A stretch of 64,000 nucleotides of DNA from Bacteroidales bacterium (GTDB lineage: Bacteria; Bacteroidota; Bacteroidia; Bacteroidales; VadinHA17): the NCBI GenBank assembly GCA_025454795.1, contig JALONT010000001.1:128947-192946 (forward strand), given 5' to 3'. Under the pieces are notes generated by a model. It had not been told where the DNA came from and did not search any database. It saw only the letters and a list, made by a program, of their open reading frames with translations. Position 1 is the stretch's first letter. Every line of letters begins with the position of its first letter. Position numbers and translations under genes: made by a program. Positions 6,741 to 62,438 of this stretch are shown here, piece by piece.

Positions 6741-6756
6741 TTTTCTGAATATTGCT

Positions 6757-6764
6757 CAAAAATA
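6757..6764 (-). promoter_or_regulatory. Candidate -7 box for the gluzincin/barrel gene
   Basis: On the minus strand TATTTTTG fits TAnnTTTG and lies 17 bp before the ATG at 6740, so the leader would be very short. No -33 box is seen at proper spacing. Weak evidence. Confidence 0.3.
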
Positions 6765-6864
6765 GGAAAATAAGTGAGTTGAAGAGTTGTGACAATGAAA
6801 AGAAAAATAAGTATTTTCGTCGTCTGATCCGAAATCGAGGGTCTTCAGTTAAACAAGAGAATTG

Positions 6865-35218: not shown

Positions 35219-35276
35219 TGAAAACAGCTTTTATTATAAAAATTTAAGTCAGGAGCGGTCATCTAATTGCCTTTTT

Positions 35277-35400
35277 ACGGCCAGGCAATAAATTGAGATT
35301 GCGTTTCGCCAGCCTTGCTCCGCTACCTTCATCGGCCGCAGGTCGACTTTGGCGACCGAAGGACGAAGCGGCTGTGCGAAGGCGATGCTGGCGTATGGCA
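35277..35400. repeat. Dispersed GC-rich palindromic element, copy 1
   Basis: A GC-rich block (35304-35393) stands out in this AT-rich DNA. It starts CGCCAGCCTTGC and ends GATGCTGGCG, so its ends are inverted repeats, with an internal GGTCGACTTTGGCGACC hairpin. A second copy is at 58711-58800 with about ten differences over 90 bases by eye. The left flank ACGGCCAGGCAATA matches the family of elements that bound gene packages at 46-59 kb. Confidence 0.8.
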
Positions 35401-36586: not shown

Positions 36587-36925
36587 TTCTTATTCAGTTA
36601 AACATCAATACTATTTACTAAGGATAATTGTAGTCTGGTTATTTTTTTAAAAGTAGTTATTATTCCTGTTTGTTATCAGACTCCAATGTTTACTGAACAG
36701 AAAATTATTAACAAGAGACGTTAATCGTTGTTCTTAAATCACCCACTGCACTAAATTTCTTTATAAGGGCATTATTCAGCTTTGATTATTTGGTTCATTT
36801 TGGTTTCGCCGAGCTCGCCCCTCTAATGCACTCTAATAATAATGTGGCTCACAAATTCGGGTTTCGGTTGTATCAAGACAAAAGAACAGAAACCTTTAAC
36901 ATTTGATATTATCCAGGGAATGCAA

Positions 36926-37015
36926 CATAACGGCCAGGTAATAAAAGGAGGTTGTGTTACCCGACGACAGAACCGGGCATGATCCCGGTACTTTAGCTCA
37001 GCCAGCCGTGTATTT
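36926..37015. repeat. Cassette-boundary-like element in the 36587-37248 gap
   Basis: CATAACGGCCAGGTAATA followed by GGAGGTTGTGTTAC matches the left part of the elements at 46269, 51648 and 58679. An internal hairpin ACCGGG-CATGAT-CCCGGT is present. No clear right-hand GTTAGC box was found, so the element may be degraded. The rest of the 662-bp gap contains no supportable gene. Confidence 0.5.
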
Positions 37016-37248
37016 CTTCACAATAAAGGGAACAGTTAATATATTTGATTTTATAAACTTTTGCCATGACAAAGACAGAATAGTTAAGGAGATTCTTAAT
37101 TTTATAATTTTAGAAAACTTAAGGTTTATTACTTGTAATTACAGTGAATTTTTAAGAATATAATACTGAAAACAGGGTAGTGTTTTTGTGCATCTGGTCA
37201 GTTATAGTCTGGAATATTAAAGAATAATAAAATTTCATTGGTAACTTG

Positions 37249-41082: not shown

Positions 41083-41787
41083 TTATTTTGGTTTATTTCT
41101 TTTATTATAATCCCTTTCTACAAGGGATCTTTTATTTACTGAGCCATGGGAGGGAATAAATATTTTACATTTTGTATTAAGGAGTTTCCTCCAGCTTTTT
41201 AGGATTTGAACGTGATCAGATACAAAAGGTGGGAATACGGTCCACCAGAATATTCCGAACATAGTATCACCTACCAGGGCAACCTCATTATCTATTATTA
41301 AGCTAATTGACCCTTGAGTATGTCCTGGAGTATGAATTAAATAGGCATTGAATCCCAGATTTGAGAGGTCAAAAGTTTTATCAATTGCATTGTCGGATTC
41401 GCATGGTTGATATCTTGCAAATGACATAAACTGTCTGGCAAAAACTTTAACCAGATATTTTGTAATTGGATTTGTCGCGGCAGGAAGAATATTGTCACCG
41501 GTAGCAAGGTACTCAGCTTCAGATTTGTGAATAATTACCTGAGCATTGTATTTTTCTTTTATTCTATATGCATTTGCTGCATGATCGAAATGTGAATGGG
41601 TGAGGACTAAAAGATTAATCTGTTTAATCCTCAGTCTTTCCAGTCTCTTTTGCAGAGTTTTCCACATGAATTCCGGACTTGTGTCAATCAATATGTTAGA
41701 CTTGCCATTGGTAAGAAGAAAAACATTGCTTCGTCCTGAAAGGACCTGAATTATTTTATACTCACTGGATGTCGACCAGATTCTCAT
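41083..41787 (-). CDS. MBL-fold metallo-hydrolase
   Basis: A 234-aa metallo-beta-lactamase-fold hydrolase. The metal-binding motif is HSHFDH at 64-69, followed by HTPGHTQGS, the bridging Asp in LVGDTMFG, and a final His in IPSHGSV, so the active site is complete. Substrates in this fold range from lactams and thioesters to RNA and lactones; the sequence looks like the general hydrolase/glyoxalase II-like group. It is separated by 160 bp from the methyltransferase upstream. Confidence 0.88.
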   Translation of the reverse strand: MRIWSTSSEYKIIQVLSGRSNVFLLTNGKSNILIDTSPEFMWKTLQKRLERLRIKQINLLVLTHSHFDHAANAYRIKEKYNAQVIIHKSEAEYLATGDNILPAATNPITKYLVKVFARQFMSFARYQPCESDNAIDKTFDLSNLGFNAYLIHTPGHTQGSISLIIDNEVALVGDTMFGIFWWTVFPPFVSDHVQILKSWRKLLNTKCKIFIPSHGSVNKRSLVERDYNKRNKPK

Positions 41788-45975: not shown

Positions 45976-46268
45976 ATATAATAATCAGCAAATTTAGAAT
46001 AATATTTTAAGAAAGTCAAGGTTATCCAATATTATTTTTAATTGAAGGTGGAAAGGTAGATTGCACTCTTTTGCAAACCTTTGGTTTTGAGGGTTGGCCA
46101 GCGCGGGTTTGCAGATGTGTGCAATTTGAATTTATGAATTTTAGAATTTTTTACGCGCGGGCAAAGTCATGATAAATGGAGACAATGTTAATTGTCAGGT
46201 CCTAAGTTTTTAAAGGCACAAGTCCAACCAATTGTCTCGTCTGGAAAAACTGTCAAGGTGTTCAGCTT

Positions 46269-46359
46269 GCCAATAACGACCCGGCAATATGGGGAGGTTG
46301 TGTCCCGCGCAGCGGGAAACAACTTACCCACTTGTCCGTATTATAGGCGTGTTATAGCC
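46269..46359. repeat. Cassette-boundary element A (attC-like, about 91 nt)
   Basis: It starts GCCAATAAC-GACCCGGCAATAT and ends GTTATAGCC. By eye the whole folds on itself: GTTGT..CCCGC pairs with GCGGG..ACAAC around a 3-nt loop, then GGG with CCC, and the outer CAATAAC with GTTATAG. Imperfect, bulged full-length pairing is characteristic of integron attC sites. It is followed by AGTGTTATTTT and a TTGTCA motif shared with other copies. Nothing else codes between perR and the TonB receptor (45945-46650). Confidence 0.6.
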
Positions 46360-46650
46360 AGTGTTATTTTAAAATTGTCAGTATGTGACAAATATAAAAG
46401 TCATGGTTTGCAGGATTTATTCTTTGCAAGCTCGTTTAAAAGCTTTGATTCGTGTTTCAGCTAGTGAGGCTTTTAAATGTGCTTGCAAAAAAACCAGATT
46501 GTTCTTATTATATCTTTTTTTCAATTTGCATGTCGTAATTTTTGCAGTCCAGCAGTGGAGCTGTCCGGGTTTGTCAACTGTTTTCAGGTCCCGTCTAAAT
46601 GGTACAGTGTCATGCAAAAACTAAGACTAGCAGCTTACCTTACTCGATTG

Positions 46651-48909
46651 TCAAGGTGTGTAATTGTTCTCATTTTTTGTTATTGAAAATGGGATTCTTA
46701 AATTCAATGCAATATTTCTCCCGGGATTAAATAATCCTACTTCTTTTAAAGTCGACAAATGGTCAATGTATTTTCTGTCAAAAAGGTTATTTGCACTTAT
46801 GCTGACTGACATAAGTTGGTTTTGAATTTTTATGTTTCCTCCTATACTCAGATCCAGTAGTGAGTAGCCGGAAGTGGTTGTTTCATCCGGCGCAGCATAG
46901 TTTTGGTCAAAGGCAGTGGTTGTGTAAACTGAAACAAAGGCTTTTCGCAGAAACAGTAAATTTTCTTTTTCTGCCCTTAGTTCAAAACGTAATTTGTGTG
47001 CAGGTACAAAAGGTAAATATTCACCATTGTCTTGCTTTCCGATAACTGATGAAAATGTAGTTTCAAAATGGAGCCATTCTATTTGTATTGGATGAATATG
47101 CAAACCTGATTCTCCTCCAAATAAAGTTGAATTAGCCTGCTTGTATTTGTATATATAGATCCCTGATGATGTTGTGTCTCCAGTTGGTGAAATAAATATA
47201 TAATTATTGATGATATTGTAAAAGCCTGCAATGTCGAAGGTAAAATTATCTTTATGGTAATGGATACTCAAATCTGTTTCGTAGGAATTTTCGGGAACAA
47301 GATTATTATCCCCGATTTCGTATCGCAATTCATGTGGACCGTTTGAAGTAAGTTCAGCTAAATTTGGTGTGCGGTAAGCAGCGGCAAAGTTAGCTCTGAA
47401 TAATAGTTTTTCAGATAAGTTATAAGTCGCGCCAAATGATCCGCTGAAGCTTCCAAAGTACTTTTCAAGGGCTGCACGATATGTCATAGCGTCGGTAGGC
47501 GAACCGATAGCTTGTGTTGAAATTGATTTGTTGTCGTAACGAACACCGTTTTGCAATTTTAATTTCTTTAATAAAGTATATTGCAATAACCCAAATGCAG
47601 AATAGTTGTTTGTGACAGCATCTGGCAATAGCTTTGTTTCTCTGTCATTCAGATTTGCATTTGTTTGGTTAAAACCCTGAAAGCCTATTATGTATTCTGA
47701 ATCTTCTTTCGAAGGTAAATGAAGCCTGGCTTCATAAGTAAGTGTTGAGAGCCTCATTTGGATTTCATAAACATCAACATCTCCATAATGAATCAATTCT
47801 GTATTCTGATATGCTGAATTTACATCTAACTTAAATTTGCCCAGGTACAACTTGTTCTGCGAGGAAAGTAAATGAGTATTCAGCTCCTGATACCAGATGT
47901 TGTTTTCTCTTCCTCTTTTTGTGATTTCATCAATAGCTTCGTCTTCCACCAAGCCAAGTTTTTGATTATTGAAATCGTAAAACAATTTAAATGTTCCAAT
48001 TTTATCTGTATATCCTGCATTTGTTTTAACAGACATTTCATTGAAACGCGAATTGGGAACAAAAGCGCCACCTCCCTGCAAAAAATCTGCATTTGTTTTT
48101 TGACCGACTCTTACTCCGCCAAAGAATTTCTTCGATGCTCCCTTTATTCCAAAATTATTTGTCATCCCAAGAGTGTTTGAAAAGAGTTGCAGGTTGTAAT
48201 CGCCAGTAATGCTACCAATAGGTGCTGGTTTTTCTTTGATAAAATTAATGACACCGCCAATAGCATCTGATCCGTAAAGCAATGAAGCCGGACCTTTGAT
48301 TATTTCAACATCTTCAATTCCAAATTCGTCAATTCCAAGAGGATGATGACTGGAATACTGATAATTTTCAAACCGCACGCCATTATTTAAAACCAATATA
48401 TCATTCATCGAAAGTCCACGGATAACAGGTTTAGAAACGCCGCTCCCTTTTGAAATCATATCAACTCCTGGCACCTGAGTTAGTACTTCCGAGAAATTAG
48501 GTGTAATTTTAACTGTATGTGGATCAAGTTTTAAAACGTCAATTTTTACAGCATTATCATGTTGGGTGGAATTATAAACGCCGGAAACCACTATTTCTTC
48601 CGCTTCAACTGCAGTTTGCTTTAATAAAATATTAAGTTCTATGCTTTCTCCGTTTAATTCAACTGTTTCAATATGGTTAGCGAAACCAACAAATGAATAT
48701 TGAATCCTGTTTTTCCCATTAGGTAAATTTACTAATTGATAATTCCCATTTTTATCTGAAATTGTTCCCTTGTTCATGTCTGAGATGAATATTGTCGCTC
48801 CGGGTAATGGTAAATTATTCTGGTCAGTTATCTTTCCAATTATCTTGTTTTGTGCGTTCAGTGAATGATAAAATAATATCAAAACGCATACTATGAGGAC
48901 TTTTTTCAT
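46651..48909 (-). CDS. TonB-dependent receptor with carboxypeptidase-like domain, probable metal or metallophore uptake
   Basis: A 752-aa outer-membrane transporter: signal peptide 1-19, carboxypeptidase-like domain about 22-95 (KIIGKITDQNNLPLPGATIF), plug with VKPVIRGLSMNDILVLNNG-like and EIIKGPASLLYGSDAIGGVI, then the barrel. The plug string 'YSSHHPLGID' is typical of receptors linked to metals such as zinc or copper. A His/Cys-rich small protein is encoded 54 bp upstream. The substrate is inferred, not shown. Confidence 0.92.
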   Translation of the reverse strand: MKKVLIVCVLILFYHSLNAQNKIIGKITDQNNLPLPGATIFISDMNKGTISDKNGNYQLVNLPNGKNRIQYSFVGFANHIETVELNGESIELNILLKQTAVEAEEIVVSGVYNSTQHDNAVKIDVLKLDPHTVKITPNFSEVLTQVPGVDMISKGSGVSKPVIRGLSMNDILVLNNGVRFENYQYSSHHPLGIDEFGIEDVEIIKGPASLLYGSDAIGGVINFIKEKPAPIGSITGDYNLQLFSNTLGMTNNFGIKGASKKFFGGVRVGQKTNADFLQGGGAFVPNSRFNEMSVKTNAGYTDKIGTFKLFYDFNNQKLGLVEDEAIDEITKRGRENNIWYQELNTHLLSSQNKLYLGKFKLDVNSAYQNTELIHYGDVDVYEIQMRLSTLTYEARLHLPSKEDSEYIIGFQGFNQTNANLNDRETKLLPDAVTNNYSAFGLLQYTLLKKLKLQNGVRYDNKSISTQAIGSPTDAMTYRAALEKYFGSFSGSFGATYNLSEKLLFRANFAAAYRTPNLAELTSNGPHELRYEIGDNNLVPENSYETDLSIHYHKDNFTFDIAGFYNIINNYIFISPTGDTTSSGIYIYKYKQANSTLFGGESGLHIHPIQIEWLHFETTFSSVIGKQDNGEYLPFVPAHKLRFELRAEKENLLFLRKAFVSVYTTTAFDQNYAAPDETTTSGYSLLDLSIGGNIKIQNQLMSVSISANNLFDRKYIDHLSTLKEVGLFNPGRNIALNLRIPFSITKNENNYTP

Positions 48910-48963
48910 TTTATTACGAGTTAATGTTTTACAAATAAGATGTTTTACATCCGGGAGGATGTT

Positions 48964-49284
48964 TTAAATGCTATTTGTAAATATGGGAGGAGCACGTAAT
49001 AAAAATGAGAATTGTGAGAAATTAGAAAAATATACGGAATCGTAATTATTGCAGAAATATTCTAAGGGGTTTTCTTTTTGGAAATCAATATCTCCAGTGT
49101 TTGACAAAAAGACAGAAAATTCAAAATTACATATAACACACTTATCATGAAGGACATGGTAGTGTTTCTCATTTATTGCTTTGCATTCAAAGTGTTCGTG
49201 GTGATGTTCAAGTTTAACTAATGAAGGCAGAAGGAAAACCAGCAATAGAAATAAAGAAGTAATATTTTTGAATCTTCTAATCAT
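48964..49284 (-). CDS. Small His/Cys-rich exported protein
   Basis: A 106-aa protein with a hydrophobic N-terminal signal or anchor (about 8-22) followed by HHHEHFECKA and HYHVLHDKCVICNF. The clustered His and Cys suggest metal binding in the periplasm. Such short proteins recur beside metal-type TonB receptors in Bacteroidota, as here (receptor gene 54 bp downstream). I know no formal family name. Confidence 0.7.
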   Translation of the reverse strand: MIRRFKNITSLFLLLVFLLPSLVKLEHHHEHFECKAINEKHYHVLHDKCVICNFEFSVFLSNTGDIDFQKENPLEYFCNNYDSVYFSNFSQFSFLLRAPPIFTNSI

Positions 49285-49444
49285 TAAATATTCGCTCAGT
49301 CATGCTAATGTATATTCTTTTATAAGGCACAATGTTCAAATCTAATTGTTTTGAATTGATTAAAAATATGTCGTTCGAAAATTATTTTAGATTGTATAAC
49401 TGTCTTAATTAGAAGGAGCGAGGTATAGTGTTAGCCTTAGTGTT

Positions 49445-51529
49445 TTACTTATCTGTTTCTCGATTCTTAAGATGCTTCTTTATTAATGAAAGAAGTTCAT
49501 CTTTATTTATTGGTTTTGAAATATAATCGTTGCATCCGGCTTCGATTGCCATCTCTTTGTCGCCTTTTTGTGCATAAGCTGTCTGTGCAAAAATAACTAT
49601 ATCCCTGTTTAATTGACGGATTTGCCTTGTCGCCTCATATCCATCCATTTCAGCCATTTTAATATCCATAAGTACTAAATCAGTATCAGGATTATTCAAG
49701 TATGCTTCAACTGCTTCGAGCCCGGTTTTGGCTATTAATACTTCTTTACTGATTTTTTTGATCATTCTGGAAATCAGCAATACCGATGCATCATCGTCTT
49801 CGGCGATTAATATTTTAAGGTTTTTTAATCTGAAATCTTCTTCATCTGGTGGAACAGCATTTTTATTATCGTTGCTTTTAATTTGTTCAGGATTATACGG
49901 AATTGTAAAATAGAATATAGAGCCACCTTTGTTCCGATAGCTGATTACATCACTTTCTACCCAGATTTTGCCACCAAGCATCTCTACATAATTTTTAGAT
50001 ATAAATAAACCCAGACCAGCACCTTCATAATTTCTATTAAGGGAATCACTTCCTTGCCTGAATCTTTCAAAGATGGTTTCCTTTTGTTCCAAAGTAATGC
50101 CAATCCCTGTATCTTTTACATAGAACTCAATGTTGGCTCCCTTTTTTTTATATCCAAATTCAATTGATCCTTCATTAGTAAACTTGATAGCATTTTTAAC
50201 CAGGTTGGTAAGAATGGCGAGTAGTTTTTCATTATCGGTACAAATAATTGCTTTGTTATCAGGAATATTATTTACAAAGGAAATCTTCAATCCTTTTTTT
50301 TCTGCTTCAGGTTTGAAAAAGTTGTGGATATACTCTGTTTGTTCGTTTATATTACATTCTGAAATAGAAATATTCATCTGTCCTGATTCAATCTTTGAGA
50401 CATCTATCAGGTCATTGATGATATTGAGCATTCTGACACCGCTGTTTCTTATTATATTGATATACTCGTGCATTTCGTTGCTGGCAAGCATAGGATTCTT
50501 CAACAGTTCGGCAAATCCCAGGATACCGTTCATTGGCGTTCGTATTTCATGGCTCATATTGGCAAGGAAAGCAGATTTAAGGCGGTCGCTTTCCTGAGCT
50601 TTTTCTTTGCTTTTAATTAACTCTTGTTCAATATTTTTTATATCTGATATATCCCTTAAGTGCTCTATGACATAGAGTAATTCTCCTTTTTCATTTAAAA
50701 TGGGATAAGAACGCATATCGAACCAAATATTGTATTCGGGGAAGAATTGCTGATGGATCTCCGTTTTTTTCGATAAATAACAATCGGCAGTTGAACATAT
50801 CTCGCACCTCGTATTCCTGCCAATTAAACTAAAGCATTTCTTACCTGAAACTTCTTCAGGTGTGAGATGAAGAAAATCATACCCTGCTTTATTGTATCTT
50901 ATTACTTCATGATCGTTGTTCTGTATACCAATCATATCTGGTATTGCATCAAGGATAGCGTTGAGCAATGATGCAGTCGCAATATTTCTTTCATGGCTTT
51001 CCGAAAGTTCTTCTTCTACTTTTTTGCGTTGGGTGATGTCCCTTGCCAACCCTAATACCCTACATTGATTTTTGATTTTAATCGGATAAGTGATAATTTC
51101 TACAACTACTTCTGATCCGTCTTTTCGGGTTAGTAAAAATTCATCCGGCCCGGTAGCTTGCCCTAATGAATTTTTGAGTAATAGTTTGGCTGCTAGTGGT
51201 ATCTGTTTAAAAGACAGAAGGTTCAATTTCAGGTAATTCTTTCCGATTAATTCGTTTTTACCCTGCCCAAGCAATTTTTCAGCAGCAATATTCCCGTCTA
51301 TTAAAGTGCCTTTAAGATCGCTTAGAAAATAAGCATCGGGTGCGTAATCAAACAAAATCTTAAACTGCTCTTCCGAGCCTATCAATTTGGCCTTAACCAA
51401 ATTAAGCTCTTTGATTTCTGCTTCTAGTCTTAAAACTTCAGCAGCTTTTAACTTCAAAAAATTATTTTCCTCTCGCAAATTCGCTAATTCTTTAATCAGC
51501 TGTTCTTTGCTTTTGATATTATCATCCAT
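49445..51529 (-). CDS. PAS-PAS hybrid histidine kinase with C-terminal receiver
   Basis: A 694-aa cytosolic sensor: N-terminal coiled coil about 1-50, PAS about 53-168, a second PAS about 190-300, HisKA with H327 (NMSHEIRTPMNG), HATPase with N- and G-boxes (DTGIGITLEQ, GAGLGLFISK), and a receiver with phospho-Asp in LVLMDIKM. The second PAS has four cysteines (C232, C242, C245, C250), a possible metal or Fe-S site. A strong Shine-Dalgarno AGGAGG lies 8 bases before the ATG. It may sense metal or redox state for the receptor next to it; that link is inferred. Confidence 0.9.
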   Translation of the reverse strand: MDDNIKSKEQLIKELANLREENNFLKLKAAEVLRLEAEIKELNLVKAKLIGSEEQFKILFDYAPDAYFLSDLKGTLIDGNIAAEKLLGQGKNELIGKNYLKLNLLSFKQIPLAAKLLLKNSLGQATGPDEFLLTRKDGSEVVVEIITYPIKIKNQCRVLGLARDITQRKKVEEELSESHERNIATASLLNAILDAIPDMIGIQNNDHEVIRYNKAGYDFLHLTPEEVSGKKCFSLIGRNTRCEICSTADCYLSKKTEIHQQFFPEYNIWFDMRSYPILNEKGELLYVIEHLRDISDIKNIEQELIKSKEKAQESDRLKSAFLANMSHEIRTPMNGILGFAELLKNPMLASNEMHEYINIIRNSGVRMLNIINDLIDVSKIESGQMNISISECNINEQTEYIHNFFKPEAEKKGLKISFVNNIPDNKAIICTDNEKLLAILTNLVKNAIKFTNEGSIEFGYKKKGANIEFYVKDTGIGITLEQKETIFERFRQGSDSLNRNYEGAGLGLFISKNYVEMLGGKIWVESDVISYRNKGGSIFYFTIPYNPEQIKSNDNKNAVPPDEEDFRLKNLKILIAEDDDASVLLISRMIKKISKEVLIAKTGLEAVEAYLNNPDTDLVLMDIKMAEMDGYEATRQIRQLNRDIVIFAQTAYAQKGDKEMAIEAGCNDYISKPINKDELLSLIKKHLKNRETDK

Positions 51530-51647
51530 ATTCTACCTCCTGAGTAAGTGGGTTTTGATATATCACTATGTTATCTTTGAAGATGATTTAGTGGCAAATA
51601 TAATGGAAAGTTGGTTATTTTTCATAGTTAGATATGTATCACATTAA

Positions 51648-51798
51648 GGCTAATGGCCCGGCAATATGGGGAGGTTGTGTAACACGACGCAATTTCGGCC
51701 GACCAGAAGTCCTGGTTTAATGGCAGAAGATATCTTTCGGCCGGAAAAGGAGGGTATGCCGTGACAAACCTATTTATTTTATTGACCGTGTTGTAGCC
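51648..51798. repeat. Cassette-boundary element B (about 151 nt)
   Basis: It starts GGCTAATGGCCCGGCAATAT and ends GTTGTAGCC. The outer CGG-CAATA pairs with TATTG-A-CCG (51658 and about 51779) and GAGGTTGT with ACAAACCT. The internal part holds two further small hairpins around CGGCCG. It is followed by AGTGTTATATTAGTTGTCAAG, nearly as at element A. It lies in the 332-bp gap between the kinase and the trehalose genes, otherwise empty. Confidence 0.6.
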
Positions 51799-51861
51799 AG
51801 TGTTATATTAGTTGTCAAGATGTAACAAACCTTTTTTAAGTCATGGTAAACGATTCAGATA

Positions 51862-54081
51862 TCAATTAATAGTAGCCATTGTTCTTAATAAGCTTGCAGC
51901 CCATGAATAAATATTATGTCTGACAATTATAAGTCGCATTTGTGTCATTCGTTTATTCTGTTCTTCTGTAGTCATTTCCAAAGCTAATTTTATAGCATCT
52001 GCTGTTTTTTCTATGTCATAAGGGTTAACAATAATTGCTCCCTGAAGTTCCTGCGATGCTCCGGCGAAACGACTTAGTATAAGAGACCCGTCATTGAGAT
52101 TTCGTGAAGCAACAAATTCTTTTGCGACAAGGTTCATACCATCATGCAGTGATGTAACCATGCAAAAATTTGCAGAAGAATAAAAGGGAGCTATCTCTTC
52201 GTGACTGTGATGCCGTTTTAAGAGAAGTATAGCCTTCCAGTTTTTTGATTTGAACCGCCAGTTGATTCTGTTAGATTCATTTTCAACAGCACTTACCATG
52301 TCAGAATAGCTTTTTAGTAGAGTTCGGCTCGGTGCGCCTATTTGAACAAAAGTAAATTTCCCGATATAAGAGGGATTCTTTTCCAAAAATCGTTCAATAG
52401 CAAGAAATTTTTCTATGATACCTTTTGTATAATCAATCCTGTCTACACCTATGCCCATAAATTGCGAAGTAATACCATGTTCATATAACAGTTGGGATGG
52501 TTTTATTTTTGTTGAATTATTATCGTAATCTTTTAATGTGAATGCAATGCTGATGGGAAACGATTTGACCAAAGTTGTACGGCCACCCATTTTTACTGAA
52601 AAATTCTCCCATAAAACTCTAGATTCAAGCGCATTATTTACTGTTTCAAGAAAATGGTTACAATGATACTGTGTATGAAATCCGATTAAATCAGCACCAA
52701 GCATCCCATGTAGTATTTCTCTCTGCCATGGACAAATACCAAATGATTCTGGATTTGGCCAGGGAATATGCCAGAATATGGCAACTTTAGCTTTGGGTTT
52801 TTCTTTTTTTATCAGTTCAGGTAGTAATGCGAAATGAAAGTCCTGAATTAAAATATAAGGTTGTTCTTCATTTTTTGTTTCATCCAGCACGGCTTTGGCA
52901 AAATCTTCATTAACTTTTTTGTAATAATGCCAATCATCATTTCTGAATGTAGGACGTGTATGTGCGATATGACAGAGCGGCCAAAGTCCTTCATTTGAAA
53001 AGCCATAATAAAAATGGTCTTCTTCTTCTTTTGTCAACCATAATCTTTTTAACGTGTATTTTGGTTCTTCTGGAGGAACCTCCACTTTGTCATTTTTGTT
53101 TACGGTTTCTTTATCTGCGTCCCCTGTCCCTGATGCGATCCATAGTCCACTGCATGCTTTCAATATAGGCTCCATGGCTGTAATCATTCCGCTTGCAGGA
53201 ACAATGCATTTTATTTCCTTACCTTCGTGGATGTGCATATATGGCTCACGATTGGAAACAACAATCATTTTCTTCTTTTGTAAAAGATTTTCCATTTCCA
53301 CTTTAAGTCGTTCGGGTGTCCAAATGGCTTCTGCACTTGTTCTTAACCGTGCTTCTTCTTCAGCCGTGGCCTTGGCTTCATGCATTGCTTTTGCTATGTA
53401 TTCAATCTCTTTATGCAAAGGGTCAAGAAATTTTAAATACGGTTGCGGTTTTATTTGTCCTGTGCTGCCTGTGCGCACGGCCTTTGCCCAATCTACAATT
53501 TTATTTATAGGACTAAAAATTCCCCAACGGATAATAAGTAAAGTGACAAGAGATACTAAAAATGCCTGAATAAACCATCTTATAAAATTCCGAAACCATA
53601 TTTTGCCAATGATTGTATCAATGTAGCCGGCATCAGTATAAAAGACAACAGCATTATTGGATATATCTGCCCGGTTTCCCGGTTTGATATATTGATATAT
53701 GCTTTCCCCTGCAATTGTGAAAAAATTTCCAAGAGATGTATCAGCAGTTATTGATTGTGAAATGTAGTCCATCGAATGGTTAATAAAATTACGGGTAGCA
53801 TTGTTGCTTATAATACTATCGATGTTGTAATAAACTGCAATACCCAGTAAATTGTACCGTTTGTTGATACTGTCTGCAAAACGCTCAATATTATGTTGAT
53901 CTACTATTTCAAAAAAAAAGGTATCGCCCTGAAGTATATCCTCTGTTACCTGTTCAGTGCGGATTTCAAGTTCTCGAATTAGTTTATTCCTTTCAGTTGT
54001 ACTCTGGTAAAAAGTAAATCCAAATGCTACCAGTCCAACAGCAAAAACTATTGTAAGTATGAATGCAAGTGTTAATCTCAT
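51862..54081 (-). CDS. Trehalose-6-phosphate synthase fused to a membrane sensor/HAMP module
   Basis: A 739-aa protein. Residues 1-24 and 168-188 are transmembrane helices enclosing an about 140-residue extracytoplasmic domain. A HAMP-like segment about 190-245 follows. From about 272 the rest is a GT20 T6P synthase (IVVSNREPY, HIPWPNPESF, VDRIDYTKGI, SLHDGMNLVAKEF). OtsA normally is about 470 aa and soluble, so the sensor-like front end is unusual. It makes trehalose 6-phosphate from UDP-glucose and glucose 6-phosphate. The gene overlaps otsB by 4 bp and is translationally coupled to it. Confidence 0.93.
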   Translation of the reverse strand: MRLTLAFILTIVFAVGLVAFGFTFYQSTTERNKLIRELEIRTEQVTEDILQGDTFFFEIVDQHNIERFADSINKRYNLLGIAVYYNIDSIISNNATRNFINHSMDYISQSITADTSLGNFFTIAGESIYQYIKPGNRADISNNAVVFYTDAGYIDTIIGKIWFRNFIRWFIQAFLVSLVTLLIIRWGIFSPINKIVDWAKAVRTGSTGQIKPQPYLKFLDPLHKEIEYIAKAMHEAKATAEEEARLRTSAEAIWTPERLKVEMENLLQKKKMIVVSNREPYMHIHEGKEIKCIVPASGMITAMEPILKACSGLWIASGTGDADKETVNKNDKVEVPPEEPKYTLKRLWLTKEEEDHFYYGFSNEGLWPLCHIAHTRPTFRNDDWHYYKKVNEDFAKAVLDETKNEEQPYILIQDFHFALLPELIKKEKPKAKVAIFWHIPWPNPESFGICPWQREILHGMLGADLIGFHTQYHCNHFLETVNNALESRVLWENFSVKMGGRTTLVKSFPISIAFTLKDYDNNSTKIKPSQLLYEHGITSQFMGIGVDRIDYTKGIIEKFLAIERFLEKNPSYIGKFTFVQIGAPSRTLLKSYSDMVSAVENESNRINWRFKSKNWKAILLLKRHHSHEEIAPFYSSANFCMVTSLHDGMNLVAKEFVASRNLNDGSLILSRFAGASQELQGAIIVNPYDIEKTADAIKLALEMTTEEQNKRMTQMRLIIVRHNIYSWAASLLRTMATIN

Positions 54082-54836
54082 AAGGATAACTGTTTTAAGA
54101 GAAATACAACATCGTTGATACTGGTAAATTTATATTTGGCAAAAGTATCTCCGTTTCCGACTTTAATAGTATATGCCTTGGTAATATGGGAAAAAAACTC
54201 AAACATCTCTTCATCTGTTGCGTCATCTCCAATTGATAATATGAAATCATAATTTTTTTGCTCAAATAATTTCATTACAGCTTTCCCCTTGCCAACTTCA
54301 TTAGTCATTACTTCTACCACTTTATTTCCATCCAGTATTTTTAAATCATAAGAATGAATTATTGCTTCTAAGTTATTGATTAATTTTCTTGAGTGAGCAA
54401 ATCCCGATTGCGATTCAGCATTTCTGTAATGCCATGCTAATGAAAAATCTTTTTCCTCAATAAATGATTCAGGGCATTCAGCAGTAATCTGATTCAAAAT
54501 GGGGATGACTGTTTCTTTCCAAGAGCAATTATTGTTTATCTGATTTTCCCATCTACCTCTTTCTCTAATTATTGCTCCATGCTCTGCAATAATATTAATT
54601 GGAAGATTAGCGAAGATTTTATCAGTTTCCTGATGACCTCTTCCAGTGATTATAAATATTTCTGTTTGTGGAGTGTCAAGCAGTCTTATAAGAATATCAA
54701 ATAAGTGATCAGTCAATTTGGCAGCAACAGGCATAGGCGTAAAATCAACTAAAGTCCCGTCATAGTCAAGCAGAACCATCCTGCTATCTGCGTTTCTGTA
54801 CTTTTTTATCAATTCTGCTTTTTTAAAATCGTTCAT
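54078..54836 (-). CDS. otsB: Trehalose-6-phosphate phosphatase
   Basis: A 252-aa HAD-superfamily phosphatase that makes trehalose from its 6-phosphate. The nucleophile motif is D24-Y-D26 in LLDYDGTLVDF, the motif II Thr is in FIITGRG, and the metal Asp pair is in SIGDDATDEEMF. It precedes and overlaps the sensor-linked synthase gene, giving a compact two-step trehalose operon. The divergent GH15 gene shares its upstream region. Confidence 0.93.
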   Translation of the reverse strand: MNDFKKAELIKKYRNADSRMVLLDYDGTLVDFTPMPVAAKLTDHLFDILIRLLDTPQTEIFIITGRGHQETDKIFANLPINIIAEHGAIIRERGRWENQINNNCSWKETVIPILNQITAECPESFIEEKDFSLAWHYRNAESQSGFAHSRKLINNLEAIIHSYDLKILDGNKVVEVMTNEVGKGKAVMKLFEQKNYDFILSIGDDATDEEMFEFFSHITKAYTIKVGNGDTFAKYKFTSINDVVFLLKQLSL

Positions 54837-55061
54837 AATAATTATGGGTAATTTTTTTAGCTCATTTGTTTATTAATTGGAAATAAGATTCTGACCGAAT
54901 GCAAAATTACCAATTTCCCAGAGAAAGATTGTTAATTTCCCTGTTATATGCTAAGGTCTTATTACACAATAAAATTCATTACTATCTTTGTTATAGAAAA
55001 CAATAAAATCTGTTCCTTATTGTCAGGCAAAGTATTCGGGCAATCATCAAAGGAATTTATT

Positions 55062-56855
55062 ATGGATAATTTGAATTATGGTGTAATTGGCAATTGCAGG
55101 AGTGCAGCCCTGATTTCAGATAAGGGAAGTATAGACTGGTGTTGTCTCCCCGATTTTGATTCCCCTTCCGTATTCGCGAAGCTTATTGATAACGATAATG
55201 GAGGGTATTTTAGTATTATTGCAGATGATAAATATATAATCACACAAAAGTACATAATCTGGACAAATGTTTTATGTACAGAATTTAAATCTGAACAGGG
55301 TACATTTGAGGTAATTGACTTTATGCCCCGTTACAAACTAGTTGAGAATGACTATTTTGCACCCGCTGAAATTTATCGGTATATAAAACACATTTCAGGT
55401 TCTCCAGCCTTCAGAGTAGTATACTGCCCTATGTTTAATTATGCCAGGGAGGAAGTTTCTAATGTAATTATTGATAACTATATACGGACATTTTCACGGG
55501 TAAAACCAACAGATTGCATTTATCTCTATAGCAGCTTAAACTTCGATGATATCCTGAAATCAAAAGAAATAGCAATTACAAAACACCAGTTTCTTTTACT
55601 GTCATATAACCAAAAACTGATTGATATAGATATTAAAAGGGTTTACCTGGAATTCCAGCGTACAAAAGTATACTGGCTTAACTGGACAAACCGTTCAAGA
55701 AAGTATAAGAAATATACCGAAGAAATAAACAGGAGTTTACTGGTATTAAAAGTTATGTCTTATCAACCTACCGGAGCTGTATTAGCAGCGTTAACGACCA
55801 GTATCCCGGAAACTATAGGTGAGGTACGTAACTGGGATTATCGTTTTTGTTGGTTACGCGATGCATCCATGTCGATAGATACATTACTTAAAATGGGCCA
55901 TACCAATTCCGCTCGGCGTTTTATGGTTTATTTAAAAGGAATTCTTAAATCGAAGAACGATTCATTCCAGACAATGTACGGCATTAGAGGTGAAAGGGAG
56001 CTTACTGAAACAGATCTTCCTCATCTGGCCGGGTATGAAAACTCAAAACCTGTGAGAATTGGGAATGCTGCTTTCTCCCAGAGACAAAATGATGTCTTTG
56101 GTTATTTACTGAATGTTATATACCAATATTACAAGGTTTTCCCCGGCACATTAGATGAAATTGAAGATATTTGGGAGATCGTACGCAATATTTGCAGAAC
56201 CATAACAACTCATTGGGAAAAACCGGATAAAGGTATCTGGGAGATACGGAATGAGGAAAAACATTTTGTCTTCTCAAAAGTGATGAGCTGGGTTGCAATG
56301 GACAGGGCAACTGAAATAGCAAACATACTAAATAAAACATATTATGCTGAAACATGGCGGAGTATTGCAAATGACATTAAAGAAGACGTATTAAAGAACG
56401 GCTGGAAGGAGGATTTGCAAACATTTACCCAAACCTATTGTAATTCAGATCTTGATGCCTCTTTATTGCTCATGGCTGAATATGGATTTATTGCTTATGA
56501 TGATCTGAAGTATCAAAAAACCGTGAAGGCTGTTGAAAATGCACTTTTATATAACGGATTGGTATATCGTTATATAATCCATGATGATTTTGGTAAACCG
56601 ACGTCATCATTTACAATATGTACCTTTTGGTTAATTCAAGCTCTGTTCAGAATTGGTATGAAGGAGGATGCAAAGAATATTTTTGAAAATCTCCTCGCCT
56701 GTGGAAATCATTTAGGCCTTTTTAGTGAAGATATTGATTTCTCTACAAAACGACTTTTAGGTAATTTTCCTCAGGCTTATTCGCACTTAGCTTTAATTAA
56801 TACAGCAACTATTTTTTCAGAGGAAAGGGTAATTCCTAAATTTATTAAACCGTAA
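55062..56855 (+). CDS. Glycoside hydrolase family 15 protein (glucoamylase/trehalase-like)
   Basis: A 597-aa soluble GH15 protein. It has the usual N-terminal beta-sandwich (YGVIGNCRSAALISDKGSID, CCLPDFDSPSVFAK) and an (alpha/alpha)6 barrel with RNWDYRFCWLRDAS near residue 255 and a second acidic site further on. GH15 includes glucoamylases and the mycobacterial trehalase, and the genomic neighbourhood of otsAB favours trehalose. The frame extends upstream to 54948; the ATG at 55062, with AAAGGA before it, starts the standard MDNLNYGVIG N-terminus. Confidence 0.9.
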   Translation: MDNLNYGVIGNCRSAALISDKGSIDWCCLPDFDSPSVFAKLIDNDNGGYFSIIADDKYIITQKYIIWTNVLCTEFKSEQGTFEVIDFMPRYKLVENDYFAPAEIYRYIKHISGSPAFRVVYCPMFNYAREEVSNVIIDNYIRTFSRVKPTDCIYLYSSLNFDDILKSKEIAITKHQFLLLSYNQKLIDIDIKRVYLEFQRTKVYWLNWTNRSRKYKKYTEEINRSLLVLKVMSYQPTGAVLAALTTSIPETIGEVRNWDYRFCWLRDASMSIDTLLKMGHTNSARRFMVYLKGILKSKNDSFQTMYGIRGERELTETDLPHLAGYENSKPVRIGNAAFSQRQNDVFGYLLNVIYQYYKVFPGTLDEIEDIWEIVRNICRTITTHWEKPDKGIWEIRNEEKHFVFSKVMSWVAMDRATEIANILNKTYYAETWRSIANDIKEDVLKNGWKEDLQTFTQTYCNSDLDASLLLMAEYGFIAYDDLKYQKTVKAVENALLYNGLVYRYIIHDDFGKPTSSFTICTFWLIQALFRIGMKEDAKNIFENLLACGNHLGLFSEDIDFSTKRLLGNFPQAYSHLALINTATIFSEERVIPKFIKP

Positions 56856-57061
56856 TTGTTTGAATTTCAGAATTTAATAAAGAAAAACAAGATAGATTTT
56901 AAAAACATCTATTAGGGAAAGCTACTTTTCTGGGCAGTTAGCTTCTCAAGCATGGTTTCTTTCGTTGACGAACAAATTTAATCAAAAAGAGCCAAATCAG
57001 CGGTCGCGGTTTGTTACGTAGGTGTCTCGGTGTAGTCTATCTCGCTGAAAAAGTTCATATT

Positions 57062-57121
57062 GGCTATAACGGCCCGGTGGTATGGGCAGTAAGCTTATTG
57101 CCTATAACAGCGTTGTTAGCA
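57062..57121. repeat. Cassette-boundary element E (60 nt)
   Basis: It runs from GGCTATAACGGCCCGG to GTTGTTAGCA. The central GGCAGTAAGCTTATTGCC is a near-perfect hairpin. The outer GGCTATAAC is complementary (9 of 10) to GTTGTAGCCA that ends element B at 51790-51799, so the trehalose package is bracketed by matching inverted ends. A TTTTAAAACTGTCAAGGT motif follows. The rest of the 56856-57194 gap is empty. Confidence 0.6.
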
Positions 57122-57194
57122 CATGTATTAATTTTAAAACTGTCAAGGTATTATAAATCAGGCCTGATGCAGAAATATTGATGTCGAAAATGAA

Positions 57195-57539
57195 TTAGTT
57201 GTTAATCTCCAGACAGCCAATCTCTTTATAATTCGGATCAGTTAAGAATGCTTTGATGAGCTTGTAATTCTTTCTCAAGACAGTCTCAATGTTTTGTGTA
57301 TTTGTGTTCCCAAGTCTTAGCCAGATTACTTTAGGGGAGGATCCCTTGATAAGTCCAAGATCGTAAAAGGCGCCGTCAAATGTTACGATGCAATAATTAT
57401 TTTCTTTTGCATAATTCCATAGAAAAGAATCTTTGGAATTCTCAAGTCCTAAGTCCCGAACTTGTTTAGAACCAGGAAATAAGTCCTGGATTTTACTGGT
57501 GATCCTAAATGAAATATTTTGGTCAAGAAGGAATTTCAT
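57195..57539 (-). CDS. DUF5615 family PIN-like toxin
   Basis: A 114-aa protein with the DUF5615 opening FLLDQNISFRI and later 'DSFLWNYAKENNYCIVTFDG' followed by a short beta end (KVIWLRLGNT). The fold is Mut7-C/PIN-like with acidic residues that suggest RNase activity. It is paired with DUF433 protein just upstream (frames meet within a base), as in many type II toxin-antitoxin modules. Confidence 0.85.
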   Translation of the reverse strand: MKFLLDQNISFRITSKIQDLFPGSKQVRDLGLENSKDSFLWNYAKENNYCIVTFDGAFYDLGLIKGSSPKVIWLRLGNTNTQNIETVLRKNYKLIKAFLTDPNYKEIGCLEINN

Positions 57540-57760
57540 CAGATCGTCTGAAGTTTACGTTCCCTGTCAGCTGCGAACATTAAACTAGCGTTGATATCCT
57601 CTCTTGAAAGTTCAGGATAGTCATTGAGTACTTCTTCAAAACTCATTCCTGAACCTAACCATCCAAGAATATCAAATACAGTAATTCTGGTATTTCTGAT
57701 ACAAGGTCTTCCAAATCTCTTGTCGGAGCTGATTTTGATTATCTTGTTGTATGTTTTCAT
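57539..57760 (-). CDS. DUF433 family antitoxin
   Basis: A 73-aa helix-turn-helix protein with the DUF433 pattern 'GRPCIRNTRITVFDILGWLG' and 'FEEVLNDYPELSREDINASL'. These are antitoxins partnered with DUF5615 toxins. It starts about 54 bases downstream (minus sense) of a boundary box at 57815 and probably autoregulates the module. Confidence 0.88.
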   Translation of the reverse strand: MKTYNKIIKISSDKRFGRPCIRNTRITVFDILGWLGSGMSFEEVLNDYPELSREDINASLMFAADRERKLQTI

Positions 57761-57814
57761 GGCTCAAAGATACTACAATTTTGATTTTGACATATCTGGT
57801 TTTCCCTCGTTACC

Positions 57815-57943
57815 GTTAGCACATGTATTTTTCGTCGCGTGATGGGAGAGTCCCGGTAGAAAGTACTATTGTTAATTATATAACAGCTCTTTCCGGTTAC
57901 GGCGGGAGGACTAATCGTCAGATACAGAAATATATGTGCTAAC
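57815..57943. repeat. Inverted-repeat-bounded gene-less segment (129 nt)
   Basis: GTTAGCACATGTATTT (57815-57830) faces AAATATATGTGCTAAC (57928-57943), an inverted pair. The left string is also identical over 15 bases to the sequence after element E (57115-57129). The interior has no gene. An interior GTCCCGG/CCGG-GGACT pairing is possible. It looks like an empty or decayed cassette. Confidence 0.6.
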
Positions 57944-58029
57944 AGCCCGGCAATAAAATTAGTAGACAACTGTGTCAGCAGTAACTTTAGCGAAGGCTGG
58001 ACAAATGACCTTTTTTGTCCGTGTTAGCT
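57937..58029. repeat. Cassette-boundary element F (about 93 nt)
   Basis: It starts TGCTAACAGCCCGGCAATAAAA and ends TTTTTTGTCCGTGTTAGCT. The two arms pair: GCTAACA with TGTTAGC, and CGG-CAATAAAA with TTTTTTGTCCG. The left box is complementary to the cassette start at 57115 (GTTAGCACATGTAT), while the right box GTTAGCTGGTGTA is complementary to the start of element H. This is the pattern seen between successive integron cassettes. Confidence 0.65.
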
Positions 58030-58037
58030 GGTGTACT

Positions 58038-58379
58038 TTATTCAAGGTCCAGGATTACTTTAATATTCTCTTTGACTTTTAATTGAAGATCACGAGGAAG
58101 TTCTCCTACCTTATGTGTAAGTCGTCTGTTATCAACGGCTCGAATCTGGTCAATCATTATGTCAGAGTCACTTTTAAGATTTGCAGTCCCTTTCTTTATA
58201 TGTACTCTAAGTATTTCACTTTCAGGAACTATATTAGTTGTGATAGGGCAGATAACAGAAGAAGGATGATCTTTAAGTAGGCTCGTTTGAACTATTAGAA
58301 CAGATCTTACTTTGCCAGTTTCAGTGCCACGTTGTTGTTCCAGGTCGGCAATCCAGATATCAAATTGTTTAATTTTCAT
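58038..58379 (-). CDS. PemK/MazF-type toxin
   Basis: A 113-aa endoribonuclease-type toxin. It opens MKIKQFDIWIADLEQQRGTE, followed by 'RSVLIVQTSLLKDHPSSVIC' and QIRAVDNRRL, the usual PemK/MazF beta-barrel landmarks. The frame has an upstream TTG at 58403, but the ATG at 58379 is better and overlaps the antitoxin stop by 11 bases, as is normal in these operons. Confidence 0.9.
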   Translation of the reverse strand: MKIKQFDIWIADLEQQRGTETGKVRSVLIVQTSLLKDHPSSVICPITTNIVPESEILRVHIKKGTANLKSDSDIMIDQIRAVDNRRLTHKVGELPRDLQLKVKENIKVILDLE

Positions 58380-58599
58380 CTTGAAGGCTCTCAAATTCGG
58401 CAAGTACAGCTAAGGATTCTTTTTTAACTAGTCTTGATTCTCTTGCTAGTTTTCTGGAAATCAGGTTTCTCCGGTTGATCCTATTATAATAGTCAACTGC
58501 CTCATTTATGTATCTATTCCTTGACTTTTTAACTTTAGTTAGGACGTCTTCAGTCTCGTTGAAGATATTGTCGTCGAGTTTTAGTGATAGTGTTTTCAT
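58369..58599 (-). CDS. Ribbon-helix-helix-type antitoxin
   Basis: A 76-aa antitoxin: N-terminal RHH-like MKTLSLKLDDNIFNETEDVL and helical C-terminal toxin-binding part. I chose the ATG at 58599 over 58644 because the candidate promoter and operator at 58611-58652 lie between them, and an upstream start would place the operator within the coding region. It is coupled to the PemK toxin. Confidence 0.8.
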   Translation of the reverse strand: MKTLSLKLDDNIFNETEDVLTKVKKSRNRYINEAVDYYNRINRRNLISRKLARESRLVKKESLAVLAEFESLQDEN

Positions 58600-58610
58600 G
58601 TAATATGCTT

Positions 58611-58652
58611 TAAGTATACCGCAAAGGTATATACTTAATTTCATGTGTGCAA
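58611..58652 (-). promoter_or_regulatory. Toxin-antitoxin promoter with overlapping operator
   Basis: On the minus strand TTG (58652-58650), a 20-bp spacer and TACCTTTG (58629-58622) match the Bacteroidota -33/-7 consensus. The -7 box is embedded in an inverted repeat TAAGTATACC (58611-58620) with GGTATATACTTA (58626-58637). The layout fits autorepression by the antitoxin, with a start about 23 bp before its ATG. Confidence 0.7.
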
Positions 58653-58678
58653 TAGGGCAGCGAATAGACTCGTATACC

Positions 58679-58910
58679 AGCTAACGGCATGGCAATATGG
58701 GGAGGTTGTGTTCCGCCAGCCTTGCTCCGCCGCCTTCGTCGACCGTAGGTCGACTTTGGCGACCGAAGGCCGAAGCGGCTACGCGAAGGCGATGCTGGTG
58801 GATCGCGGTACAAACTATCTCGAAGGCAGAAATTTATCACGGTGCAGAATTTTAATTATGTGCAGATGTGCGTGCATGCCCTGAGCGGAGCGAAGGGTCC
58901 GGGTTATGGT
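58679..58910. repeat. Cassette-boundary element H containing GC-rich palindrome copy 2
   Basis: It begins AGCTAACGGCATGGCAATAT and GGGGAGGTTGTGTTCC, like elements A and B, then holds the GC-rich block (58711-58800) shared with 35304-35393. TACCAGCTAAC at its start is complementary to GTTAGCTGGTG ending element F, bracketing the PemK package. A right boundary may be GTTATGGTTAGTTGATTTT at 58903-58921; GTTATGATTAGTTGAATTTT recurs at 62415-62434. Confidence 0.6.
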
Positions 58911-58988
58911 TAGTTGATTTTTACTCTTTGATTGACTCTCCTCGCTCATGTAATTATTCCTAGTGAACGGATATTATCTCATTTTTAA

Positions 58989-62183: not shown

Positions 62184-62438
62184 CTTTTTTCTTTTAGTTA
62201 ATAATTTGACTTATAAACTTTATAATCAAGATAATACGAATACCCAAAATCAATTTATTAAGAACAATTAAGAGCACTTAAATCAAAGTTACAGTTTGAT
62301 TAAATTATATGCAATTTTTTTTGTTAGGATTTGTCGCGGCATATTTAATTTGTCAGGAGTAAAAGTCATGTTAGAATTCCAGAAGTTGTCTCGGCTAACT
62401 GACGTTGCTTTTCTGTTATGATTAGTTGAATTTTAGGA

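What the first reader, a model, noticed from the sequence alone, without database searches (positions are those of the whole stretch)
46269..58910. Integron-like cassette array without an integrase, bounded by attC-like palindromes
At least five related non-coding elements (A 46269, B 51648, E 57062, F 57937, H 58679) separate small functional gene packages. Each begins near GCTAAC/GGCTATAAC-GGCCCGG-CAATA and, where the right end is clear, ends near GTTAGC/GTTATAGCC. Elements A, B, E and F can be folded by eye into one bulged hairpin. The bases that follow one element are the reverse complement of those opening the next: GTTAGCTGGTGTA at 58023 versus TATACCAGCTAAC at 58673, and GTTGTAGCCA at 51790 versus TTGGCTATAAC at 57060. 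In integrons each cassette carries its own attC ends, so exactly this pairing is expected. Contents (toxin-antitoxin pairs, stress and transport genes) also fit. The boxes only loosely match GTTRRRY and no intI is in the window, so this would be a CALIN or an unrelated system. The A-B pairing is poor.
Basis: partly seen in the sequence, partly recalled or inferred. Interest (0 to 1): 0.8.

Follow-up and report, generated by a model that had tools for sequence, protein, structure and literature searches.

The report
Integron array with an unrecognised integrase
The spaced hairpins in this Bacteroidota genome mark the ends of gene packages in the way an integron does, and the enzyme found beside such arrays lacks the part that is used to define integron enzymes, which may be why such arrays have been overlooked.

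Summary
The elements are attC-like: an inner stem with compensatory changes (122 copies), unpaired spacers, and TAAC/GTTA outer boxes. The bases outside the boxes pair across each gene package: 45 of 52 package ends match in at least the first 4 bases, and mean match over 8 positions is 0.76 against at most 0.41 in 2000 re-pairings. In 48 of 48 packages with an ORF of 80 aa or more, the longest ORF lies on the same strand relative to the elements. That is integron cassette anatomy. The same genome, on another contig, carries a 513-aa tyrosine recombinase followed by attI, a cassette and an attC. In a relative the chain from attI runs through 5 cassettes; plasmids of Rufibacter and Pontibacter carry arrays too. 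The recombinase lacks the IntI insertion (GKG-to-HxxRH spacing 63-68 aa, against 107 in IntI) and has one or two N-terminal domains, found in 159 of 395 Bacteroidia genomes sampled. Not shown: recombination itself, and linkage of the window array to the integrase. Best reading: the eroded distal part of a non-canonical Bacteroidota integron.

The parts
46268..46360 (+). Element A (attC-like, bottom-strand orientation): TAAC at 46274, GTTA at 46351, outer hexamer TAGCCA 46355-46360
51645..51799 (+). Element B: head box decayed to TAAT at 51651, tail GTTG 51790-51793 + TAGCCA
51794..57066 (-). Package B-E, bounded by TAGCCA / TGGCTA (6/6 pairing, G.T at position 7): trehalose-phosphate synthase (GT20), trehalose-phosphatase and, on the other strand, a GH15 glycosidase
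57061..57124 (+). Element E (short, about 60 nt): TAAC 57067, GTTA 57115, outer hexamer GCACAT
57119..57939 (-). Cassette E-F, bounded by GCACAT / ATGTGC (6/6, G.T at position 7): DUF5615 + DUF433 pair (toxin-antitoxin type; this function is recalled, not from a call)
57934..58032 (+). Element F: TAAC 57940, GTTA 58023, outer hexamer GCTGGT
58027..58681 (-). Cassette F-H, bounded by GCTGGT / ACCAGC (6/6, G.T at position 7): PemK/MazF toxin and a small partner ORF
58676..58912 (+). Element H: TAAC 58682; right end uncertain
36922..37040 (+). Degenerate element head (TAACGGCCAGGTAATAAAAGGAGGTTGTG), no clear tail
35270..35400 (+). Degenerate element head (TTACGGCCAGGCAATA) with an H-like body (84% over 123 nt)

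Best explanation
The window holds the distal, partly eroded part of an integron-type gene-cassette array. Each element is an attC-like site. Read on the strand opposite to the genes it is N6-TAAC / spacer / L stem / variable loop / L stem / spacer / GTTA-N6, and this bottom strand is the one that mostly folds better. Each cassette is what lies between GTTA and the next TAAC, so its own two ends are complementary. A diverged tyrosine recombinase inserts or excises cassettes at attI and attC by cutting next to GTTA. Anatomy and covariation are shown here. Cutting, use of the bottom strand, and joining of contig C77 to the end of C1 are inferred. The recombinase has one or two N-terminal repeats with a weak likeness to HARP and XPB-DRD folds, and no IntI insertion. 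I infer that these repeats, not the IntI domain, help it to recognise the folded site.
For: Flank pairing across packages, 52 pairs, re-pairing control. L-stem covariation in 122 elements: first 9 bp identical in 0.90, permuted maximum 0.71, with CAATATGG, CAATAAAG and CGGTATAA types matched on both arms. Longest ORF on the same strand in 48 of 48 packages that have an ORF of 80 aa or more, out of 52. attI motif after int; its hexamer pairs >=5/6 with a candidate element within 5 kb in 17 of 30 usable loci of 48, against a permuted mean of 1.84 and maximum of 7. Chains of 2 to 5 links in 10 of 29 regions, 7 of these starting within 750 nt of the int stop; none of 2 or more in 87 shuffles. R' motif within 5 kb downstream of int in 8 of 12 genus loci given (of 26), upstream in 0 of 12. 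Plasmid arrays with 3 distinct links each in Rufibacter and Pontibacter, 0 in 5 shuffles each. Own genome: int, attI, cassette and attC on C77. One cassette in four genomes with different surroundings. Bottom strand folds better in 12 of 16, equal in 2.
Against: Window array and int lie on different contigs. Within the genus, int and elements are not significantly associated by simple motif counts (Mann-Whitney p 0.20, Fisher p 1.0). A->B pairing fails and H->J is unresolved. 7 of 52 package ends match in fewer than 4 leading bases, 6 of them mismatching at the first. Fold z-scores are modest and the top strand is better in 2 of 16. 10 of 29 int regions gave no chain and 9 only one link, which shuffles also reach. 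No recombination was observed and no empty site was found.
Confidence: 0.88

Rival explanations
1. Canonical CALIN: ordinary integron attC sites left without their IntI.
For: attC-like architecture; canonical IntI is common in other classes of the phylum (over cut-off in 105 of 395 genomes).
Against: Boxes are GTTA-N6, not GTTRRRY. No IntI over cut-off in 62 of 62 genomes of the genus. A different recombinase sits at attI beside such arrays.
Confidence: 0.06
2. Dispersed REP/MITE-like hairpins that merely sit between genes.
For: Several copies in the window lie next to ordinary chromosomal genes (35275, 36928, A, B).
Against: Flank complementarity across packages, one-sided gene orientation, and chains starting at attI are not expected of such repeats.
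Confidence: 0.03
3. Structured RNA or terminators acting between genes.
For: Stem with covariation in the L part.
Against: No Rfam match in the window apart from two tRNAs; covariation extends across the gene between different elements, which one transcript hairpin does not explain.
Confidence: 0.02

Closest known systems
Canonical integrons (IntI + attI + attC arrays, as in Vibrio)
   Same: Cassette definition, R/L box architecture, unpaired spacers (7 and 5 nt here), variable terminal structure, cassette-end complementarity, attI next to int, same-strand cassette genes, G after TAAC on the bottom strand (compared with passages of PMC2727003)
   Different: Integrase lacks the IntI insertion and has N-terminal repeats; int reads towards the array; box is GTTA/GTTG-N6 with a conserved mismatch at position 7; elements 67-497 nt
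XerA / simple Xer-like tyrosine recombinases (NF040815)
   Same: Closest solved relatives of the core are XerA 4a8e and 5hxy, then IntI4 2a3v; NCBIfam NF040815 212-220 bits against a cut-off of 220 for four members
   Different: N-terminal extension, attI and cassette arrays
'Integron-like' subgroup of tyrosine recombinases in PMC8138268 (passages seen)
   Different: No arrays, attI or such N-terminal domain in the passages seen

Membership tests
Integron (canonical, IntI-type) | Tyrosine recombinase gene beside the array | tested here: met
   In relatives int, attI and attC are contiguous; plasmids have int followed by linked elements; catalytic residues invariant in 24-row A1. For the window itself int is on another contig
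Integron (canonical, IntI-type) | IntI-specific additional domain in the catalytic domain | tested here: not met
   GKG-HxxRH spacing 63-68 aa in 63 of 63 measured members, 107 in 18 of 18 IntI; 6 members not measurable by the motif; a 290-aa IS91-linked relative has 73. In the TIGR02249 matches listed about positions 180-240 are unmatched
Integron (canonical, IntI-type) | attI next to int | tested here: met
   own genome; not identified in the Rufibacter and Pontibacter plasmids
Integron (canonical, IntI-type) | attC fold: R''-L''...L'-R' with unpaired spacers | tested here: met
   L-stem covariation, 122 elements; R pairing within cassettes
Integron (canonical, IntI-type) | R box consensus GTTRRRY (recalled) | tested here: not met
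   GTTA/GTTG followed by variable N6
Integron (canonical, IntI-type) | Extrahelical bases in the L'' arm | tested here: inconclusive
   In the window's subtype the arms are collinear, with mismatches at positions 10 and 18 and a G.T at 12 rather than bulges
Integron (canonical, IntI-type) | Precise cassette excision and integration | not testable with these tools
   Only indirect: one cassette in four genomes with different surroundings
CALIN (attC cluster without integrase) | No integrase for the array | tested here: inconclusive
   Recombinase + attI + attC on contig C77 of the same genome, but its physical link to the window array is not shown
REP/MITE-type dispersed repeat | Flanks unrelated to neighbouring copies | tested here: not met

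The most novel reading that the evidence does not exclude
Class Bacteroidia carries its own widespread lineage of integrons. Their integrases descend from a XerA-like enzyme, lack the insertion held to be essential for IntI, and recognise the folded bottom strand of attC through N-terminal HARP/XPB-DRD-like repeats. A conserved A.C (top strand) versus G.T (bottom strand) position in the R stem takes part in strand choice. Canonical integrons are then one of at least two solutions to cassette capture.
Probability: 0.4. Interest if true: 0.92.

Novelty: new variant of a known kind. Interest (0 to 1): 0.82.

Why it matters
Few integrons are on record from Bacteroidetes proper: the passages seen of PMC9024848 name one complete one, in Salinibacter ruber M1, though Bacteroidota is listed among phyla with integrons in PMC8618304, and canonical IntI turned up in many genomes of other classes of the phylum here. 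If Bacteroidia have their own type, a large pool of cassettes has gone unseen because the standard search requires the IntI-specific domain (passage of PMC9668308). It would also test whether that domain is needed for cassette recombination at all.

Tried and rejected
Rfam: two tRNAs only. Canonical IntI in the genome or genus: none over cut-off. Pattern TATAACGGCCNGG alone with 2 mismatches: 222 hits against 372 for the reversed control. TAACACGGACRRTA with 1 mismatch: 612 hits against 704 in controls over the genus, useful only in array-rich genomes. Pfam for the N-terminal domain: only weak hits, DUF5710, DTC and HARP in 5, 4 and 3 of 19 members. Fold comparison of that domain: best Foldseek hit SMARCAL1 HARP at E 0.09; VIA-align best XPB N-terminus Z 7.1, HARP Z 4.0; these may reflect only a common arrangement. 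Tree (quick method, 68 of 92 rows: 26 of the class rows and 12 of 18 IntI drawn at random, one plasmid row left out): IntI form one clade, long forms one clade; how IntI relates to the new family is unresolved, with long-branch warnings. Phage search: 83 records, none covering 80% of the query; the ten rows listed match only the core. Short recombinases beside IS91 transposases or in transposons match the core without the N-terminal domain and were not followed. Literature: nine searches; no title or abstract start among the rows listed, nor the passages seen of seven papers, describes such a system. The library holds no preprints and few subscription papers, so this is weak evidence of novelty.
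Full report
What is in the window. The window is C1:128947-192946 of a 3.29-Mb, 86-contig genome.

Are they attC-like? Over 122 distinct elements found by head and tail motifs in all loci fetched by then, the first 9 positions of the two inner arms agree in 90% of cells against 66% (maximum 71% of 1000) when arms are permuted; CAATATGG, CAATAAAG and CGGTATAA types change on both arms together. Copies within one genome are related, so these are not 122 independent events. Positions 10 and 18 of the stem are conserved mismatches and 12 a G.T pair. Element length is 67-497 nt, median 374.

Do the flanks define cassettes? In integrons the two ends of one cassette pair. Over 52 distinct tail-to-next-head pairs from the 79 loci given (duplicates with identical flanks removed, nothing else dropped) identity by position was 0.88, 0.94, 0.92, 0.94, 0.85, 0.73, then 0.02 at position 7, then 0.83, 0.79, 0.56; 45 of 52 match in at least the first four bases, one in three, and 6 mismatch at the first base. 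Re-pairing at random never exceeded 0.41 over eight positions in 2000 trials against 0.76 observed. The head base at position 7 was T in all 52 and the tail base G in 85%. On the gene strand this is A.C, on the other strand G.T, so the gene-antisense strand can pair better. Folding with DNA parameters gave a lower energy for that strand in 12 of 16 elements, equal in 2, higher in 2; only 5 of 16 had z <= -2. Of 52 packages, 48 had an ORF of 80 aa or more, and in all 48 the longest lay on the same strand. Median package length is about 1054 nt.

Where is the integrase? TIGR02249 found no IntI over its cut-off in this genome or in any of 62 genomes of the genus, but it did find a second recombinase, about 375-547 aa where complete. 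It exists in a long form with two N-terminal repeats and a short form with one. In G063, G074 and G040 it lies beside the elements and reads towards them. A conserved stretch after its stop codon ends in ATAAACAAGTTA or similar: attI. With attI chosen by a matrix on the 12 bases before GTTR, the next six bases pair at 5 of 6 or better with a candidate element within 5 kb in 17 of 30 usable loci (of 48), 6 of 6 in 10; swapping hexamers between loci gave means of 1.84 (maximum 7) and 0.53 (maximum 4). The seed strings came from these same loci and some chosen sites score poorly, but the tested bases were not used to choose the site. Chain walking gave 2-5 successive links in 10 of 29 regions, 1 in 9, none in 10; none of 87 mononucleotide shuffles gave 2 or more, though many gave 1. 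Seven of the ten start within 750 nt of the int stop (L162, L163, L200, L255, L258, L260, L261); in L259 and L201 the best chain starts further off, and in L256 inside the int gene, so its first link there is likely chance. In one region (L253) no int ORF was recognised. In the own genome, C77 carries the 513-aa recombinase, a 206-aa ORF, attI (GTTA, then GGTGTC), a partner end (GGCACC before TAACACGGATGG; the same end also occurs about 140 nt earlier) and the attC's other end GTTAGTG. The orientation fits a run from C77 position 1 into the right end of C1; this is inference.

Is the recombinase an IntI? The spacing from the GKG motif to HxxRH is 63-68 aa in 63 measured family members and 107 in 18 canonical IntI from other classes of the phylum; six members lacked the exact motif. 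The core resembles XerA most, then IntI4. In the tree IntI form one clade and the long forms another; the link between IntI and the new family is unresolved. The N-terminal domain alone is modelled well (pLDDT 89) and resembles, weakly, SMARCAL1 HARP and the XPB N-terminus, domains which I recall as reading DNA structure.

How widespread? The N-terminal domain is found in 40 of 62 genomes of the genus, 159 of 395 of the class and 64 of 395 of the phylum; not all first-look candidates were scored, and some matches are in short frames. Canonical IntI are over cut-off in 105 of 395 of the phylum; of the 108 genomes with E <= 1e-45 one is in the own class. The window's element type (one pattern, 2 mismatches) occurs in 25 of 117 genomes of the family; G066 has 47 matches, and its contigs agree in length and position with those named JALHSP, isolate PFL1. 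Plasmids of Rufibacter tibetensis (NZ_CP012644.1) and Pontibacter kalidii (NZ_CP111080.1) carry a recombinase followed by strings of mostly small same-strand genes and elements of about 60 nt with 3 distinct paired links each, 0 in 5 shuffles each; the Rufibacter protein matches the query over 95%, the Pontibacter one over its core only, and attI was not identified in either. Two Chryseobacterium plasmids have attI-like sites but weak arrays (1 and 0 links; shuffles up to 1 and 2), and a Persicobacter plasmid gave no link.

Against. Presence of int and abundance of element motifs are not significantly associated within the genus, although the ten most enriched genomes all have the N-terminal domain, and 11 of the top twelve. 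The window array is eroded: A-B does not pair, H has no clear end, and packages A-B and B-E hold ordinary receptor or metabolic genes. No excision, integration or empty site was seen. One cassette (776 nt) recurs at 73-78% identity in three further genomes; the similarity begins 0-16 nt from the left box but stops 64-73 nt short of the right one. Flanks of up to 2.5 kb share only short hits (up to 194 nt), which I take to be elements without checking each; two of the flanks are on short contigs.

Judgement. The anatomy of an integron is met; two marks of the canonical family (IntI insertion, GTTRRRY) were tested and not met. I therefore call it an integron-type system with a non-IntI integrase: a new variant of a known kind. 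Papers: passages only of PMC9024848, PMC9668308, PMC8618304, PMC2426708, PMC8138268, PMC3414803 and PMC2727003; all others only as search listings.

Noticed in passing
window 57816: GTTAGCACATGTATT, the start of cassette E-F, is repeated inside it, suggesting a decayed element or a duplicated cassette start.
   Followed up: no
window 46351-46420 and 51790-51860: The DNA following the A and B tails looks alike by eye (TAGCCAGTGTTAT..., GTCATGGT), as if two related cassette ends.
   Followed up: partly
L175 (G038:C32) 6604-6855, downstream of int: DNA similar (74% over 254 nt) to part of the F-H cassette, its small partner ORF, lies between the recombinase and attI.
   Followed up: partly
L020:1028-1648 and L164:2053-2658: ORFs that look alike by eye, with no Pfam match for the first, sit between the long-form recombinase and attI in two genomes.
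   Followed up: partly
L188 and L265: Contigs end inside the attI-like site next to the recombinase, as expected if repetitive arrays break assemblies.
   Followed up: no
JALONF, JAFGOO, JAFGSC and other MAG contigs: The same 20-nt element core occurs in contigs binned as Ignavibacteria, Methanosarcinaceae or Atribacteria; transfer or mis-binning.
   Followed up: no
window 41455-41482 and 62314-62341: Direct repeat ending GGATTTGTCGCGGCA, with no visible relation to the elements.
   Followed up: no
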